A DNA stretch of 64,000 nucleotides from Haloterrigena alkaliphila. GTDB lineage: Archaea; Halobacteriota; Halobacteria; Halobacteriales; Natrialbaceae. Positions 3,278 through 41,946 of the stretch are shown here, piece by piece (position 1 is the first letter of the stretch; each line of letters opens with the position of its first letter). The stretch is from contig NZ_CP071462.1 of the NCBI RefSeq assembly GCF_017352155.2, positions 2,604,001-2,668,000 of the forward strand, read 5' to 3'. Made by a program: the position numbers and the translations under genes. The notes under the pieces are model-generated. The model was not told where the DNA came from. It did no database searches and worked only from the letters and a program-made list of their open reading frames with translations.

Positions 3278-3475
3278 GGCCTGCTGACCTGCTGTCCGAG
3301 CACTCCCCTCTCGCGAACGACGCGCCGCGCGGACTCGCGCCCCTCGCCCGACCCACGTCGACGGTTCAGCGGTTCTTCCGGACTGAACTACACACCCCTG
3401 ACTCGAGTGACGACCACGACGCCAGGCAAAAAGTCATCGGACGGCAAACCGCGACAACCCGAGAGCGACCCTTAC

Positions 3476-4951
3476 GGAAATCGAGGAAAAAGCCCCGCCC
3501 TTTAGGGCGGGGATGAATCCGACACTACCCTTCACAGACCGACGTTCGATGGCACGACTGGATATTTCACGCTACGTAATCCACATATTCAAGTAACCAG
3601 TTCTACATAGGTTACGTATGGCGAAACAGGTCGTCACGCGCACATACACTGCTTCAATCAGGAACCAGCAACAGGTGCAAGACGACCTCGATTCGCTCGG
3701 GTTCGCCGCCAGTAAACTCTGGAACGTCGGACGGTGGACGTGCAGTCGCGTCTGGAATGAAATCGACTACATCCCCGAACACAACGAACTCACCGCCTAC
3801 CTCAAGTCGCACGAACGCTATGATGACCTGCATTCTCAGTCAAGTCAGCGAGTCCTTCAAGAACTCGCTGAGGCGTTCAACGGCTGGTACGGCAAACGGC
3901 AAAACGGAGACACACGAGCGAACCCGCCCGGCTACCGCAAACACAACGACGAACACCCACGAAGCACGGTCACCTTCAAGAACAAAGGCTTCAAACTCGA
4001 CACTCAGTACAACCGAGTCCGACTCTCAAAGGGGTCGAATCTCAAGGAGTATTGGTCGGACTTCATCCTCTGCGAATACCAGGCTCGTCCTGATGTAGAT
4101 CTCTCCGCTGTGGAGAGCGTCCAACAGGTTCGGGCGGTCTGGACGGGCGATGAGTGGGAACTGCACTTTGTGTGCAAAGTCGAGATCGAAACATCCGACT
4201 TGCCCGGTGAGAAGACGTGGGTGTTGACCTCGGGATCAACAACTTCGCCGCCCTCGCATACGAAGACGGTCACGCCGAGTTGTATCCACTCAACTGCCTG
4301 AAGCAGGACGACTACTACTTCAGCAAGCGTCTCGCCTGCTGTGACAACTCGGACTCTGAGCAAGCCACGCGGTTGAACCAGAAGAAGTCGGCTCGCCGCA
4401 CCCACTACTTCCATATACTCTCGAAACACATCGTTCAGCGATGTGTTGACGAGGACGTTGGAACGATCGTGGTGGGTGACCTCTCCGGTATCTGCGAAGA
4501 CGAGGAGAACGGTGAGTCAAAGAACTGGGGCAAGCACGGCAACCTCGACTTGCACTCGTGGGCGTTCGATCGTTTCACCAACCTGCTCAAATACAAAGCC
4601 GAGATGGAAGGCATCACGGTTGAGCAGGTCTCGGAGCGTGACACCTCGAAGTCGTGTTCGTGTTGTGGTCGGAAGCGTAAGGCGAACCGTGTTGAACGCG
4701 GACTGTACGTGTGTGATGACTGCGAGACGGTGGCGAACGCGGATGTGAACGGTGCTGAGAACATTCGACAGAAAGTATCTCCGAGTCCCGCCACGAATGG
4801 CGGTGATAGGAGTAACGGCTGGTTGGCACAGCCATCGACATTCCTGTTAGACAAGGAGATTGGTGCGTTCGCACCTCAAGAACAGGTCACGTCGTAAACC
4901 ACAATCTCCCAACGCGGGAATCCTCGCCCTTCAGGGCTGGGAGGATGTCAA
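3476..4951 (+). mobile_element. IS200/IS605-group tnpB-only element, copy A (frameshifted)
   Basis: The ends come from comparison with copy B at 31657-33134. Similarity begins directly after TTAC (3472-3475) and ends at TCAA (4948-4951), which are the left and right cleavage motifs known for IS608. The left end has a hairpin, CCCCGCCC-ttta-GGGCGGGG at 3493-3512; the right end has another around 4922-4947. No TnpA (Y1 transposase) gene is present, so mobility would need TnpA in trans. The element is inserted antisense at the stop codon of the glycosyltransferase gene. Confidence 0.88.
3618..4897 (+). pseudogene. tnpB: tnpB of copy A, broken by a 1-bp deletion
   Basis: Two overlapping frames (3618-4301 and 4217-4897) together match the intact 426-aa TnpB of copy B end to end. 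Where copy B reads GAAGACGGTGGGTG, copy A reads GAAGACGTGGGTG near 4212-4222. One missing G shifts the frame just before the RuvC-I motif (VDLGINNF). The first frame therefore stops at codon 228 and has no nuclease domain. The second half still encodes RuvC-I, the zinc finger (CSCCG...CDDC) and the final NADVNGAENI motif. A sequencing error or programmed frameshifting are alternatives, but no slippery heptamer is evident. Confidence 0.88.
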
Positions 4952-4967
4952 CGCTCGACCGAGCTCA
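4790..4967 (+). ncRNA. Predicted reRNA (omega-RNA) of copy A with guide
   Basis: By analogy with IS200/IS605 TnpB systems, the guide RNA spans the 3' end of tnpB and the right-end hairpin and runs into the flank. Here the scaffold would end at TCAA (4948-4951) and the guide would be roughly 4952-4967. That guide matches the last codons of the glycosyltransferase gene. The 5' boundary is an estimate. The right end is intact although the protein gene is broken, so the RNA could be used by TnpB from copy B. Confidence 0.45.
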
Positions 4968-6180
4968 GGAAGAACGACGAGAACACGGTCTGGAGGCCGA
5001 TGACGATCGCGGTGAAGGCGATCAGCGCCCCCATCGTGAACTCGAGCGAGCCGAACCCGCTCGAGATCCACTGGTAGACCAGTCCCGCGGCGTACAGCCC
5101 CCCGGCAGCAAAGACCAGGAGGCCGGCCGTCGCGCCGTGCTCGAGCGATAGCGATCCGATCACCCGTTCCGTGATCGGGTCTTCGGGCTTCTGGATCGGA
5201 TCGCTCGTCACCGCGGCGAACACCCCGAGGCTCGCAACCTGATAGCCGACGATGGTCAACAAACTCCCGGCGATCATCGAGTGCAGTCCTAGCGACACGC
5301 CGTTGATCGACGCCTCGGAGTATGCGACTCCCATCACGGCCATCCCGAGCAGGCTCATCAGCATTCCGGGTACCGAAAACAGGAATCCGGGCGCGTTGAC
5401 GAGCATGAAACGGACGTGTCGCCAGCCGTCGCGGAAGCTCTCGAGGGTCTCCTCGCCCTCGCGCTCGTGGTAGATGATCGGCGTCTCCTCGATCACGAGG
5501 TCCTTCGCGCCGGCTTCCATGATCATCTCGCTGGCGAACTCCATCCCGGTCGTCTCGAGCTCCATCTCGTCGAGTGCCTGCCGGCGGAACACGCGAAAGC
5601 CGCTGTGGGCGTCGCTCACGCCGGCCCGGTAGAACGCGTTCAGAAACTTCGTCAGCAGCGGGTTGCCGACGTACTGGTGGAGCGTCGGCATCGCGCCGGG
5701 TCTGATCTCCCCCTCGAGGCGACTCCCCATCACCATGTCCGCGCCGGTCTCCTCGAGGTGACTGAGCAGCCGCGGGATGTCCTTGAAGTCGTAGGTCGTG
5801 TCGGCGTCGCCCATCGCGATGTAGTCGCCGCGGGCCCGTTCGAACGCGTACCGGTAGGCGTAGCCGTAGCCGGGCTGATCCGGTTCGACGACGATGGCCC
5901 CCAGCTCCCGCGCGATCTCGGGCGTTCGATCGGTCGAACTGTCGCTGATGATGATCTCGGTCGGCAGTTGCAGCTCCTCGACCGCCGATTTGATCCAGTT
6001 GATACAGGTTTCGATCCCCTCCTCCTCGTTCAGCGTCGGCATCACGACGGACAACGTCGGCTCGACGTCGCTCCCTCGGTCCACCAGGAGGTCGTCCGCA
6101 GACCGACGCTCGAGGCCCCGGTCCGCCTCGAGAGGGCGATCAGTCGAGGACGACTGGTTAGATTGTGATTTCGAAGACAT
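4948..6180 (-). CDS. Family 2 glycosyltransferase with C-terminal membrane domain
   Basis: A 410-aa protein. After a Ser-rich N-terminus, a GT-A domain (residues 42-270) starts LSVVMPTLNEEEGIETC and holds GDADTTYD as the DxD-type metal/sugar-nucleotide site near residue 133. Four hydrophobic segments follow (about 275-405). This is the plan of dolichyl-phosphate sugar synthases and of haloarchaeal N-glycosylation GT2s. It probably loads a sugar onto a polyprenyl phosphate at the inner face of the membrane. Its stop codon TGA is contributed by the end of IS copy A; the reconstructed original stop was TAA after a synonymous Arg codon. Confidence 0.88.
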   Translation of the reverse strand: MSSKSQSNQSSSTDRPLEADRGLERRSADDLLVDRGSDVEPTLSVVMPTLNEEEGIETCINWIKSAVEELQLPTEIIISDSSTDRTPEIARELGAIVVEPDQPGYGYAYRYAFERARGDYIAMGDADTTYDFKDIPRLLSHLEETGADMVMGSRLEGEIRPGAMPTLHQYVGNPLLTKFLNAFYRAGVSDAHSGFRVFRRQALDEMELETTGMEFASEMIMEAGAKDLVIEETPIIYHEREGEETLESFRDGWRHVRFMLVNAPGFLFSVPGMLMSLLGMAVMGVAYSEASINGVSLGLHSMIAGSLLTIVGYQVASLGVFAAVTSDPIQKPEDPITERVIGSLSLEHGATAGLLVFAAGGLYAAGLVYQWISSGFGSLEFTMGALIAFTAIVIGLQTVFSSFFLSSVER

Positions 6181-31563: not shown

Positions 31564-31656
31564 GGGGCACGCAGTCAGAAAATCAAACGCGTCGCGGGTA
31601 CCGGCCGATCGACCGCCTCGAGGCCGTATAGAAATCCTCGATCGAAACGGCGTTAC

Positions 31657-33134
31657 GGCAATCCAAGGAGAAAGCCTCGTGCTTTAGCGCGGGGATGAAT
31701 CCGACATAACCTTTCGCAGTCCACCGTCCGATGGCACAGCAGGATATTCCTCGCTTCGCAATCCCTACCTTCAAGTAGCTTTCTCTACATTAGTTACGTA
31801 TGGCGAAACGGGTCGTCACCCGCACCTACACTGCTTCCATTCGGAACCAGTCACGGGTGTCTGACGATCTCGATTCGCTCGGGTTCGCCGCCTCGAAACT
31901 CTGGAACGTCGGACGGTGGACGTGCAGTCGCATCTGGGATGAAATCGACTACATCCCTGAACACGACGAACTCACCGCGTACCTCAAGTCACACGAACGC
32001 TATGATGACCTGCATTCTCAGTCAAGTCAGCGCGTTCTTCAAGAACTCGCTGAAGCGTTCAACGGCTGGTACGGCAAACGACGTAACGGAGACACGAACG
32101 CAAACCCGCCCGGCTACCGCAAACACGGCGATGAACACCCCCGAAGCACGGTCACGTTCAAGAACAAAGGCTTCAAACTCGACACGAAGTACCAGCGAGT
32201 CCGCCTCTCTAAAGGCTCGAACCTCAAGGAGTACTGGTCGGACTTCATCCTCTGCGAGTACCAGACTCGCCCCGACGTTGATCTCTCCACTGTGGAGAAC
32301 GTCCAACAAGTACGGGGCGTCTGGACTGGTGACGAGTGGGAGCTACACTTCGTTTGCAAAGTCGAAATCGAAGTATCAGAAGCACCCGGTGAGAAGACGG
32401 TGGGTGTTGACCTCGGTATCAACAACTTCGCTGCCCTCGCCTACGAGGACGGTCACAGTGAGTTGTACCCACTCAACTGCTTGAAGCAGGATGACTACTA
32501 CTTCAGCAAGCGCATCGCTCGGTGTGACGACTCTGACTCCGAGCAGGCCACGCGGTTGCACCGGAAGAAGTCGGCTCGCCGAACCCACTACTTCCACACA
32601 CTTTCCAAACACATAGTTCAGCGGTGTGTAGATGAGGGAGTTGGAACCATCGTGGTGGGTGACCTCTCTGGTATCCGCGAAGACGAGGAGAACGACGAGG
32701 CGAAGAACTGGGGCAAGCACGGCAACCTTGACCTGCACTCGTGGGCGTTCGACCGATTCACCGACCTACTCGAATACAAGGTCGAGATGGAAGGCATCAC
32801 GGTCGAACAGGTATCGGAGCGCGATACCTCGAAGTCGTGTTCGTGTTGTGGCCGTACACGAAAAGCAAACCGTGTCGAACGCGGGTTGTATGTGTGCGAT
32901 GAATGCGGGATGGTGGCAAATGCCGATGTGAACGGCGCTGAGAATATTCGACAGAAAGTATCTCCGAGTCTCTCCTGTGACGGGGGAGATAGGAGTAACG
33001 GCTGGTTGGCACAGCCATCGACGTTCCTGTTTGACAAGGAAACTGGTGCGTTCACACCTCAAGAACAGGTCACGTCGTAAACCACAATATCCCAACGCGA
33101 GAATCCTCGCCCTTCAGGGCGGGGAGGATGTCAA
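31657..33134 (+). mobile_element. IS200/IS605-group tnpB-only element, copy B (intact)
   Basis: It starts directly after TTAC (31653-31656) and ends with TCAA (33131-33134); 1478 bp. It aligns with copy A from the first base after TTAC, and the outer flanks are unrelated, so the ends are well defined. A left-end hairpin around CCTCGTGC-ttta-GCGCGGGG and a right-end hairpin at 33103-33129 are present. No tnpA. The last TCA doubles as the reverse complement of the neighbouring gene's TGA stop. Confidence 0.9.
31800..33080 (+). CDS. tnpB: TnpB RNA-guided nuclease (OrfB, IS1341 type)
   Basis: A 426-aa TnpB. Domain order: N-terminal wedge/REC region (1-195), RuvC-I with VGVDLGINNFAAL (Asp near residue 203), an arginine-rich bridge area, RuvC-II as TIVVGDLSGI, a four-Cys zinc finger (CSCCGRTRKANRVERGLYVC, then DEC) and RuvC-III with ANADVNGAENI (Asp). 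In most TnpBs the second acidic residue is the E of an E-D-L motif; here that position reads G-D-L. TnpB cuts DNA next to a TAM with a reRNA guide. The start matches copy A, six bases after GTTACG. Confidence 0.92.
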   Translation: MAKRVVTRTYTASIRNQSRVSDDLDSLGFAASKLWNVGRWTCSRIWDEIDYIPEHDELTAYLKSHERYDDLHSQSSQRVLQELAEAFNGWYGKRRNGDTNANPPGYRKHGDEHPRSTVTFKNKGFKLDTKYQRVRLSKGSNLKEYWSDFILCEYQTRPDVDLSTVENVQQVRGVWTGDEWELHFVCKVEIEVSEAPGEKTVGVDLGINNFAALAYEDGHSELYPLNCLKQDDYYFSKRIARCDDSDSEQATRLHRKKSARRTHYFHTLSKHIVQRCVDEGVGTIVVGDLSGIREDEENDEAKNWGKHGNLDLHSWAFDRFTDLLEYKVEMEGITVEQVSERDTSKSCSCCGRTRKANRVERGLYVCDECGMVANADVNGAENIRQKVSPSLSCDGGDRSNGWLAQPSTFLFDKETGAFTPQEQVTS

Positions 33135-33150
33135 CCGAGGATGCCGTCGG
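32960..33150 (+). ncRNA. Predicted reRNA (omega-RNA) of copy B with guide
   Basis: Scaffold expected from the 3' part of tnpB through the right-end hairpin (33103-33129) to TCAA at 33131-33134; guide about 33135-33150. The guide corresponds to the final codons of the lipoprotein gene at 33131-33883. Boundaries are by analogy with characterised TnpB systems; only the 3' side is set by the IS end. Confidence 0.48.
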
Positions 33151-33883
33151 TACTTTCGTTGTCACCGCTGCCGTCGTTGGTTTCGTTCGAGCTGCTGTTC
33201 CCACCGTCCTCGGAACCGCCGGCCGAGTCGTCCGAATCGACGTCGGTGGTCACCGATTCGGTGAGCGTCGCGATGTTCGGCTGCTCCTGGCTCTGCAGGT
33301 CCCGGGGATAGACGCCGATGGTGACGAGCAGGTCCTCGTCGGCCTCGACGGCCTCGGTGATGTGGATGTCGACCTCGAGTTCCTGCCCGTCGAACGTCGC
33401 GTCGGCGGTGAACCGCGACTGGGTCGTCGACTCGCCGAGGATCGTGACGTCGCTGTCTTCCTCGTGGGAGATGTCGTTGATCCCGTCGTAGTTGCTCCTG
33501 ACGAGGTCGATGAGTTCCTGCGTCGACATCTCTCCGACGGGGTTGAGTTCCCGTCCGAAGATGCTGACCTGCGGGGTCGTCAACACGTTGTAGATGGCAG
33601 CGCGCCGCTCGCCGAGCCCCATGATCCCGACCCGTTTTTCGTGTTTGGTCATGTGGTTGCGGACCGTGACGGTCTCGTTCGTGGGGCCGACGTCGCGCTC
33701 GATGGGGAGCGCTTCGATCTCGGTCTGTTCGTAGCCGGTCTCCTCGCGGGCGGCGGCTTCGACGCCCGCGGGCGAGGACTCGTGTTCCGCCATTCCGATC
33801 AATCCCAGACAGCCCGACAGACTCGCGAGGCCGGCGGCCCCGAGGCACGCGATGACGCTTCGTCGATTCAGTTGTCGATCCAT
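33131..33883 (-). CDS. Lipoprotein with Tat-like signal (DUF6517-like)
   Basis: A 250-aa protein. The N-terminus NRRSVIACLGAAGLASLSGC has a twin arginine, hydrophobic core and lipobox LSGC (Cys near residue 25), so it is probably a Tat-exported, lipid-anchored protein. The mature domain (about 40-205) contains YNVLTTPQVSIFGRELNPVG, a pattern seen in the haloarchaeal DUF6517 family. The last 45 residues are a low-complexity S/D/G/N linker. Its stop codon (GGT TGA) is built from the end of IS copy B; the empty site would have read GGG TAA. Confidence 0.83.
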   Translation of the reverse strand: MDRQLNRRSVIACLGAAGLASLSGCLGLIGMAEHESSPAGVEAAAREETGYEQTEIEALPIERDVGPTNETVTVRNHMTKHEKRVGIMGLGERRAAIYNVLTTPQVSIFGRELNPVGEMSTQELIDLVRSNYDGINDISHEEDSDVTILGESTTQSRFTADATFDGQELEVDIHITEAVEADEDLLVTIGVYPRDLQSQEQPNIATLTESVTTDVDSDDSAGGSEDGGNSSSNETNDGSGDNESTDGILG

Positions 33884-40563: not shown

Positions 40564-41880
40564 ATGTCTGTTGTCGTGAGGCGAACCAACACGTTCGCGG
40601 TGCGCCCGCTCTCCACGCAGGACGAGCAACTGCTCCGCGACCTGTTGGACGCCTCCGCCAGTCTGTGGAACGAACTTACCTACGAACGTCGCCAAAACTT
40701 CTTCGACGGCGAATCGGTGTGGGACACCGCCGACTACCGCAAGCAGTACGTCGGCGTCCTCGGCTCCGCCACCGCCCAACAAGTCATCCGCAAGAACAGC
40801 GAGGCATGGCGGTCGTTCTTCGCTACTCGAGAAGGTGGTGAGGACACCGCCCCGCCGGGCTACTGGGGCAACGAGGACGAGGGGCGGGAGTTGCGGACGT
40901 ACCTCCGCAACGACCAGTACACCCTCGAAACCGGCGAGCGGAGCCGACTCGAAGTCCCCGTCGGCCAAGACCTGAAAGAGGAGTACGGCCTTGGCTACCA
41001 CGACCGTCTGCGCCTCGAAGTCACTGGCCACCCGAAGTGGGACGGCGAGCAGGGCCGGTTGGAACTGTACTACGACGAGGTAGACGACACGTTCAGAGCC
41101 ATTCAGCCTGTCACCGTACCCGATTCTCGACAGGATTCACCACTGGCTTTGGAAGAAGCCGCGCTGGACGTGGGCGCGAACAACCTCGTCGCTTGTACCA
41201 CTACGACCGGTCAGCAGTACCTCTACGAGGGGCGCGACCTGTTCGCCCGATTCCGCGAAACCACCGGAGAAATTGCCCGGTTGCAGTCGAAACTCCGGGA
41301 GGGCCGGTACAGCAGTCGCCGGATCCGACGCCTGTATCGCAAGCGAACGCGACGCCGCGACCACGCACGGGACGCGCTCGTGCGCGACCTTATCGAGCGA
41401 CTGTACGACGAAGGTGTCGCTACGATGTACGTGGGCGACCTCACGGACGTGCTGTCAGAACACTGGAGTACAGTGGTGAACGAGAAGACGCACCAGTTCT
41501 GGGCGTACCGTTCGTTCATCGACAGGCTCGCTACGACCGCCGAAGAGTACGGTATCAGGATCGAGGTGCGGTCGGAAGCGTACACGACGGCGGAGTGTCC
41601 GGCGTGTGGCGAGCGCGACGATACAGACCGGAACGGCGATGTGTTCCGGTGTTCGTGTGGCTACGAGGGACACGCCGACCTCGACGCTTCGCGGACGTTC
41701 CTCGAACGGCAGGCTGGCACAAATCTGGGAGTGGGGTCGATGGCACGGCCCGTACGCCTCAAGTGGGACGACCACAACTGGTCGGAGTCACCACGCTCTC
41801 CCGAGAGGGCCAGTCCCAACGAGGAGCGCACAAACCGGAGTACCGACGACGGGAAACTTGCCTCCGTAGGTACGGCATAG
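40564..41880 (+). CDS. tnpB: TnpB RNA-guided nuclease, second family
   Basis: A 438-aa TnpB unlike copies A/B. RuvC-I is [12 protein letters not shown] (Asp near residue 203), RuvC-II is [10 protein letters not shown], the zinc finger is [20 protein letters not shown] plus C, and RuvC-III is [13 protein letters not shown] (the usual ADxN Asn is Asp here). The second acidic position again reads GDL instead of EDL. The C-terminal tail of about 60 residues is polar and low-complexity ([14 protein letters not shown]) and overlaps the right-end RNA region. The start lies 8 bp from the palindrome. Confidence 0.9.
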
Positions 41881-41946
41881 CCAACATCTCACCGGAGGAA
41901 TCCCATCCTTTATGGGTGGGAGGATGTCAAGCCCCCTGATTGAAGC
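41800..41946 (+). ncRNA. Predicted reRNA of copy C with guide
   Basis: The scaffold would run from the tnpB tail through the right-end hairpin to TCAA (41927-41930); guide about 41931-41946, from the region just upstream of the aldehyde dehydrogenase gene. Only the 3' boundary is set by the IS end. Confidence 0.42.

What the first reader, a model, noticed from the sequence alone, without database searches (positions are those of the whole stretch)
31653..33134. IS copy B repeats the same stop-codon-neutral insertion in an unrelated gene
The lipoprotein gene at 33131-33883 ends CTC GGT TGA, with TTGA formed by the IS end TCAA (33131-33134). The reconstructed empty site reads CTC GGG TAA: Gly and stop preserved. 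Two of two copies of this family in the window insert antisense exactly at a stop codon following a fourfold-degenerate codon. The geometry explains it: the reverse complement of TTAC is G-TAA and of TCAA is T-TGA, so any NNG-TAA gene end can host the IS with at most a synonymous change.
Basis: partly seen in the sequence, partly recalled or inferred. Interest (0 to 1): 0.85.

Follow-up and report, generated by a model that had tools for sequence, protein, structure and literature searches.

The report
Mobile element favouring gene stop codons
In salt-loving archaea, about a third of the mapped copies of a small mobile element of a known kind sit exactly on the stop codon of a neighbouring gene, replacing one stop codon with another in the same frame, several times more often than chance would give.

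Summary
Copy B (31657-33134, host TTAC 31653-31656) ends in TCAA, turning the antisense lipoprotein gene end from CTC GGG TAA into CTC GGT TGA; copy A (3476-4951) does the same to a glycosyltransferase gene. The element is an IS608-type IS200/IS605 element with tnpB only and a recognisable omegaRNA (Rfam sot0042). 'Two of two' proves little alone, so I surveyed haloarchaeal relatives. Of 112 unique TTAC sites with both ends found, 39 lie exactly on an antisense G-TAA stop codon, against 63 of 1789 other TTACs in the same flanks; discovery (29/83) and replication (10/29) sets agree. Host genes are almost all unrelated. So the pattern generalises, but two claims fail: 16 of 39 insertions change the last residue, with no preference for fourfold codons, and 73 of 112 copies are not at stops. 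Survivorship of a harmless stop-for-stop swap explains part; an excess over convergent intergenic sites (3.8-fold, p=0.027) remains. TnpB/omegaRNA retention with a guide inside coding sequence is the most interesting untested reason. I saw no report of this preference in the papers searched. New variant of a known kind.

The parts
31653..31656 (+). host target TTAC (reverse complement G-TAA, old stop codon of the lipoprotein gene)
   Evidence: sequence; TTAC precedes the left end at 112 unique sites incl. the two window copies (sites were selected for a TTAC- or TTAT-type left end)
31657..33134 (+). copy B, solo-tnpB IS608-type IS200/IS605 element
31670..31694 (+). left-end GAAAG guide and imperfect hairpin
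   Evidence: sequence; conserved pattern in relatives; role recalled from IS608
31800..33080 (+). tnpB, 426 aa (OrfB_IS605 plus Cas12f1-like TNB domain)
   Evidence: Pfam
32956..33125 (+). omegaRNA scaffold (Rfam RF02656 sot0042, E=1.2e-49)
   Evidence: fold z=-4.4 for 32956-33134
33101..33127 (+). right-end GAAT guide and hairpin
   Evidence: sequence; role recalled from IS608
33131..33134 (+). right-end TCAA, gives the TGA stop to the antisense gene
   Evidence: sequence
33135..33154 (+). expected omegaRNA guide region (about 20 nt), antisense to the 3' end of the host gene
   Evidence: inference from TnpB biology
33131..33883 (-). host gene: DUF6517 lipoprotein, ends CTC GGT TGA
3472..3475 (+). 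host target TTAC of copy A
3476..4951 (+). copy A of the element; tnpB frame-shifted
4948..6180 (-). host gene of copy A: family 2 glycosyltransferase, ends GAG CGT TGA

Best explanation
The element is a solo-tnpB member of the IS608-type IS200/IS605 group, probably mobilised in trans by a Y1 transposase that inserts it 3' of TTAC without duplication. Shown: target TTAC and right end TCAA both read N-stop on the other strand in the same frame, so an insertion on an antisense NNG-TAA stop swaps TAA for TGA and changes at most the last residue. Shown: in the haloarchaeal relatives surveyed, insertions are rare inside genes and strongly concentrated on antisense stop codons. Inferred: much of this is survivorship. 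Transposition hits any TTAC; copies that break genes or split genes from promoters are lost; the stop codon is the least harmful TTAC in a dense genome. A further excess over equally safe 3' intergenic sites is seen but only moderately supported, and may come from TnpB/omegaRNA retention (first rival).
For: 39 of 112 TTAC sites at stops against 63 of 1789 control TTACs; replication set 10/29 against 16/541, OR against intergenic 14.6, p=4e-7. Insertions per control TTAC: inside genes 9/691; between well-called genes at most 400 nt away, promoter-containing intergenic 17/191 (divergent 5/77, (-,-) 3/51, (+,+) 9/63), convergent 5/35, stop codon 28/42. Right-end-only set: 69/265 against 50/1215 non-coding controls, OR 8.2. 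Hosts tested include SHMT, prephenate dehydratase and HMG-CoA synthase with near-complete domains. Elements with tnpA show the same: 6/27 with both ends, controls 8/318; 20/58 by right end.
Against: Survivorship alone predicts that convergent intergenic sites be as good as stops, but stops are used 3.8 times more there (12/22 against 5/35, p=0.027), and (+,+) spacers, which hold a promoter, are used as often as convergent ones (9/63 against 5/35), so the gradient of harm within spacers is weak. Sites 1-150 nt past an antisense stop are 6-fold less used (15/66 against 69/50). Recently copied elements show fewer stops (7/39) than older ones (67/221), not significant (p=0.13), yet already well above the 4% control.
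Confidence: 0.45

Rival explanations
1. Guide-retention: the sequence just right of the element becomes the TnpB omegaRNA guide, with TTAC as its adjacent motif. If that sequence is the 3' end of a gene, empty alleles in the many chromosome copies and in mating partners stay matched, are cut, and are refilled; intergenic guides drift and the copy is lost. An antisense stop codon is the one place where the guide lies in coding sequence and no gene is broken. (Polyploidy and mating of haloarchaea are recalled.)
For: The excess needs coding sequence directly right of the element: offset 0 has 34 hits/47 controls, 1-200 nt past the stop 6/104, genes ending up to 20 nt left of TTAC 1/16 (a looser count gives 3/12). 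Older copies trend to more stops. TnpB-driven spread of an IS in multicopy plasmids is reported (PMC11870625, abstract and passages). The omegaRNA is recognisable.
Against: TnpB-less MITEs also show stops by right end, 7/38 (p=8e-4 against control), unless their structured RNA uses TnpB in trans; with both ends found they show 1/12, controls 11/168, no enrichment. Broken and intact tnpB have similar stop fractions (13/38, 61/222). Copy B's guide region is not conserved in sister species. Host genes rarely recur (3 homologous pairs among 86).
Confidence: 0.27
2. Insertion-level preference: the transposase or the state of the DNA at gene 3' ends favours stop-codon TTACs directly.
For: Copies with a near-identical partner already show 4/16 (>=99%) and 7/39 (>=96%) at stops. 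MITEs share it by right end (7/38).
Against: No strong extended sequence motif apart from codon structure in the positions compared. TTACs 11-70 nt past the same stops have 2 hits/32 controls against 34/47 at the stop; in the larger set 11-80 nt gives 12/36 against 69/50. Such precision is hard to explain by transcription or replication state.
Confidence: 0.2
3. Chance or analysis artefact (own gene finder, non-independent sites).
For: Two copies alone are weak (about 1.5% by chance); my gene finder misses some genes: uncalled antisense frames of 100 or more codons at 17% of the 64 intergenic sites and 9% of the 1035 intergenic controls.
Against: Replicated in a second set; at the 8 sites shared with annotated plasmid records my call agreed 8 of 8, one of them a stop; control TTACs were scored by the same gene finder; host genes are nearly all unrelated.
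Confidence: 0.03

Closest known systems
IS608 (ISHp608) of the IS200/IS605 family
   Same: TTAC target, TCAA right end, no target duplication, subterminal hairpins with AAAG and GAAT guide tetranucleotides (IS608 details recalled)
   Different: no tnpA in this copy; archaeal; marked preference for antisense stop codons, which I do not recall being described for IS608
Haloarchaeal IS1341/IS605-type elements and PATEs (PMC3119063; passages and section 29 read)
   Same: tnpB elements often without tnpA, near-terminal palindromes, short transposase-free relatives (PATEs) with similar ends
   Different: the passages read do not mention a stop-codon relation; the five uses of 'stop codon' there concern other matters
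IStrons (PMC4227781; only the start of the abstract seen)
   Same: an insertion sequence made harmless to the host genome
   Different: IStrons splice out of RNA; here the insertion is harmless because a stop replaces a stop
TnpB gene drive of IS in plasmids (PMC11870625; abstract and passages)
   Same: logic of guide recording and removal of empty copies
   Different: plasmid experiments; the passages read do not study insertion-site preference
Prophages and islands that rebuild the 3' end of a gene at integration (recalled)
   Same: insertion at a gene end that preserves the product
   Different: site-specific recombination with long identity; here 4 bases and a frame coincidence

Membership tests
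IS200/IS605, IS608-like | tnpB with OrfB_IS605 and Cas12f1-like TNB domains | tested here: met
   Pfam 2.3e-25 and 1.2e-20
IS200/IS605, IS608-like | Y1 transposase tnpA in the element | tested here: not met
   copies A and B were scored tnpB-only (one search lists both as class B, from the scan); tnpA is present in related elements, mostly 1.83-1.89 kb, with the same kind of ends. Filed as a solo-tnpB (IS1341-type) member
IS200/IS605, IS608-like | insertion 3' of a fixed tetranucleotide, no target duplication | tested here: met
   TTAC before the left end, TCAA at the right end, joined flanks restore the gene ends of both window copies and of the other stop sites; sites were selected by TTAC/TTAT left ends
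IS200/IS605, IS608-like | subterminal hairpins with guide tetranucleotides | tested here: met
   GAAAG/GAAT next to hairpins; TTAT-target relatives carry altered guides
OMEGA (TnpB-omegaRNA) system | omegaRNA overlapping the 3' end of tnpB | tested here: met
   RF02656 at 32956-33125; identity of sotRNA and omegaRNA from PMC12558985 passages
OMEGA (TnpB-omegaRNA) system | RNA-guided cleavage of the empty site | not testable with these tools
   needs biochemistry or genetics
PATE / MITE relatives (for the short elements, not copies A and B) | same kind of ends, no tnpB | tested here: met
   elements of 383-396, 539-540 and 608-671 nt, e.g. L348:6136-6523

The most novel reading that the evidence does not exclude
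Haloarchaeal TnpB elements behave as natural gene drives that persist best where their RNA guide lies in coding sequence; the TTA-N/TCA-N end pair, which swaps an antisense stop for a stop, lets them do so without breaking the gene, a splicing-free counterpart of homing introns and IStrons.
Probability: 0.24. Interest if true: 0.85.

Novelty: new variant of a known kind. Interest (0 to 1): 0.6.

Why it matters
It shows a countable way in which a common kind of mobile element avoids harming its host: target and end sequences that are both stop codons on the other strand. It also gives a natural data set for asking whether TnpB guides shape where elements persist, a question testable in genetically tractable haloarchaea. 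It matters for annotation too: some haloarchaeal genes owe their stop codon to a mobile element.

Tried and rejected
Rejected: a strong extended target motif; a preference for synonymous change; frequent homing into the same orthologous gene (3 homologous pairs among 86 hosts; the pair L020/L222, from two archaeal families, has guides matching at 14 of 20 bases and elements 84.6% identical over 1115 bases); a 'stop lock' that keeps right ends alone (right ends without tnpA, tnpB or MITE match are not richer in stops, 5/24); plain 3'-end proximity. No match in the phage collection at E 1e-40.

Inconclusive: MITE comparison (1/12 TTAC MITEs with both ends, plus one TTAT MITE not at a stop; 7/38 by right end only; tnpB-bearing against MITE p=0.25). 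Age trend (p=0.13). A stricter end filter gave lower counts with similar ratios (tnpB-only TTAC 27/78, tnpA+tnpB 6/27, tnpB-only TTAT 3/37). Rows dropped before the count: of 257 tnpB hits, 96 lacked a found left or right end, 23 were duplicates and 1 had a short flank, leaving 137 sites (112 TTAC, 25 TTAT). Of 82 places outside the own family that I listed, 25 were already held and 57 were fetched. Of right-end matches listed, 60 further regions were fetched. Of 89 plasmid records with a match, 14 were looked at; the gene table of that collection is incomplete by its own description. A first script failed on a blastn option. An earlier count gave a wrong target coordinate for copy A and was corrected. 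In one search the joined copy A printout left out the 4-base target; one search gives the right one.

Full report
WHAT IS THERE. Copy B is a 1478-bp element (31657-33134) preceded by a host TTAC (31653-31656) and ending in TCAA. It carries one gene, tnpB (31800-33080; OrfB_IS605 and Cas12f1-like TNB domains), a GAAAG guide plus an imperfect hairpin at the left end and a GAAT guide plus hairpin at the right end (pattern in relatives). That is the layout I recall for IS608. The 3' part of tnpB matches Rfam RF02656 sot0042 (32956-33125, E=1.2e-49), the haloarchaeal sense-overlapping RNA that PMC12558985 (passages) treats as omegaRNA. Copy A (3476-4951, target 3472-3475) is 87% identical and has a frame-shifted tnpB. 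These are the only two full-length DNA matches in the genome. Other genomes of the order hold relatives, mostly 1.83-1.89 kb, with the same kind of ends plus tnpA. The own genome has three Y1 transposase matches, a possible source of transposase in trans; this is inference.

THE OBSERVATION. The antisense lipoprotein gene (DUF6517) ends CTC GGT TGA with the element and CTC GGG TAA with joined flanks. The glycosyltransferase gene at copy A ends CGT TGA and CGG TAA respectively. In sister species the lipoprotein orthologue faces the same acyl-CoA dehydrogenase gene (seen in L185-L187; L185 and L186 read) and ends NNG-TAA in 3 of 5 and TAG in 2 of 5. Of 4 sister glycosyltransferase orthologues the 2 that my script printed end at the same codon with TAG.

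IS IT MORE THAN CHANCE. I collected relatives by DNA and protein similarity (region), located both ends, removed duplicate sites, joined the flanks and called genes with a gene finder trained on these loci. Discovery set: 83 unique TTAC sites, 29 exactly on an antisense G-TAA stop, 48 intergenic, 6 in genes. Controls, other TTACs in the same flanks: 47 stop, 660 intergenic, 541 in genes. Replication set, fetched after that result: 29 sites, 10 stop, 16 intergenic, 3 in genes; controls 16, 375, 150. Odds ratios against intergenic: 8.5 (p=9e-13) and 14.6 (p=4e-7). Elements that target TTAT show the same in small numbers (3 of 25; controls 4 of 390). In a larger set needing only the right end, 74 of 265 tnpB-bearing elements are at stops; with a gene-score filter 69 of 265 against 50 of 1215 non-coding controls (OR 8.2, p=5e-25). 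Elements with tnpA: 6 of 27 with both ends against 8 of 318 controls. I looked at 14 annotated plasmid records of 89 with a match. At the 8 places already in my survey my stop or non-stop call agreed 8 of 8 (one stop); of 11 records with a clear right end, 2 are at an annotated stop and 1 lies 7 nt past one.

PRECISION AND INDEPENDENCE. Around well-called antisense stops, offset 0 has 34 insertions against 47 controls, 1-200 nt beyond has 6 against 104. Among 86 stop-codon hosts only three homologous pairs occur, so nearly all events are independent. Of ten hosts tested, nine hit Pfam families at E 1e-8 or better, among them SHMT, prephenate dehydratase, HMG-CoA synthase, ETF alpha and NFACT. 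My gene finder misses some genes on both sides of the comparison.

The codon before the stop is fourfold degenerate in 23 of 39 hosts and not in 16, so the last residue changes in those 16; background G-TAA genes give 34 and 33 (p=0.43; E>D, Q>H and M>I seen). Most copies (73 of 112) are not at stops, and a third tnpB element in the window (right end 41930) is not at a called stop.

WHY. Insertions per control TTAC: inside genes 9/691; between well-called genes, divergent spacers 5/77, (-,-) spacers 3/51, (+,+) spacers 9/63, convergent spacers 5/35, stop codons 28/42. The loss of insertions inside genes supports survivorship; within spacers the gradient of harm is weak, since (+,+) spacers hold a promoter yet equal convergent ones. 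Stops exceed convergent spacers, which hold no promoter of the flanking genes, by 3.8-fold (p=0.027), and (-,-) spacers by 13.6-fold (p=1e-5). The excess is clearest when coding sequence lies directly right of the element, where the omegaRNA guide is read; genes ending up to 20 nt left of TTAC give 1/16 or, by a looser count, 3/12. That suggests guide-dependent retention, for which a drive-like effect of TnpB in multicopy plasmids is a precedent (PMC11870625). Against it: broken and intact tnpB copies do not differ (13/38, 61/222), copy B's guide region is not conserved between sister species, and TnpB-less elements are ambiguous (1 of 12 with both ends, controls 11 of 168; 7 of 38 by right end, p=8e-4 against control), though one tested carries a strongly structured RNA before the right end (z=-4.1) and two have weak HgcC and sot0042 matches.

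COMPARISON WITH WHAT IS KNOWN. The element belongs to the known IS200/IS605 (IS1341-type, IS608-like) group. The listings of searches (titles and starts of abstracts; several lists were capped) showed none that reports a stop-codon preference; the passages of PMC3119063, PMC11870625 and PMC12558985 that I saw do not mention it. The library holds open-licence papers only, so absence from print is not shown.

VERDICT. A real, replicated site bias of a known kind of element; the mechanism is open between survivorship, guide retention and insertion preference.

Noticed in passing
L348:6136-6523, L360:5984-6523, L318, L368: Elements of about 385, 540 and 608-671 nt with TTAC/TCAA ends and no tnpB match; the one folded (L348) has a strongly structured RNA before the right end. 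They may be guide-RNA-only elements that use TnpB in trans.
   Followed up: partly
relatives: Left-end guide and target seem to covary: GAAAG with TTAC, AAAAC or AATAC with TTAT; two CAAAGCC variants go with TTAC (L135, L141). Seen by eye in listings, not tested.
   Followed up: no
relatives: The right-end variants TCAA, TCAC and TCAT all read N-TGA on the other strand in the same frame; my search patterns allowed only these three, so other ends would have been missed.
   Followed up: no
window 40600-41930: A third, divergent tnpB element with right end TCAA at 41930; part of it (40648-41930) is 73% identical to tnpA-carrying relatives.
   Followed up: partly
window 3618-4897: Copy A tnpB is a pseudogene through one missing base near 4217.
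   Followed up: yes
L114: Two homologous host genes (49% identical) in one locus each carry a related right end at the stop codon.
   Followed up: no
L020 and L222: Homologous host genes (72% identical) in two archaeal families each carry the element at the stop codon; guides match at 14 of 20 bases.
   Followed up: partly
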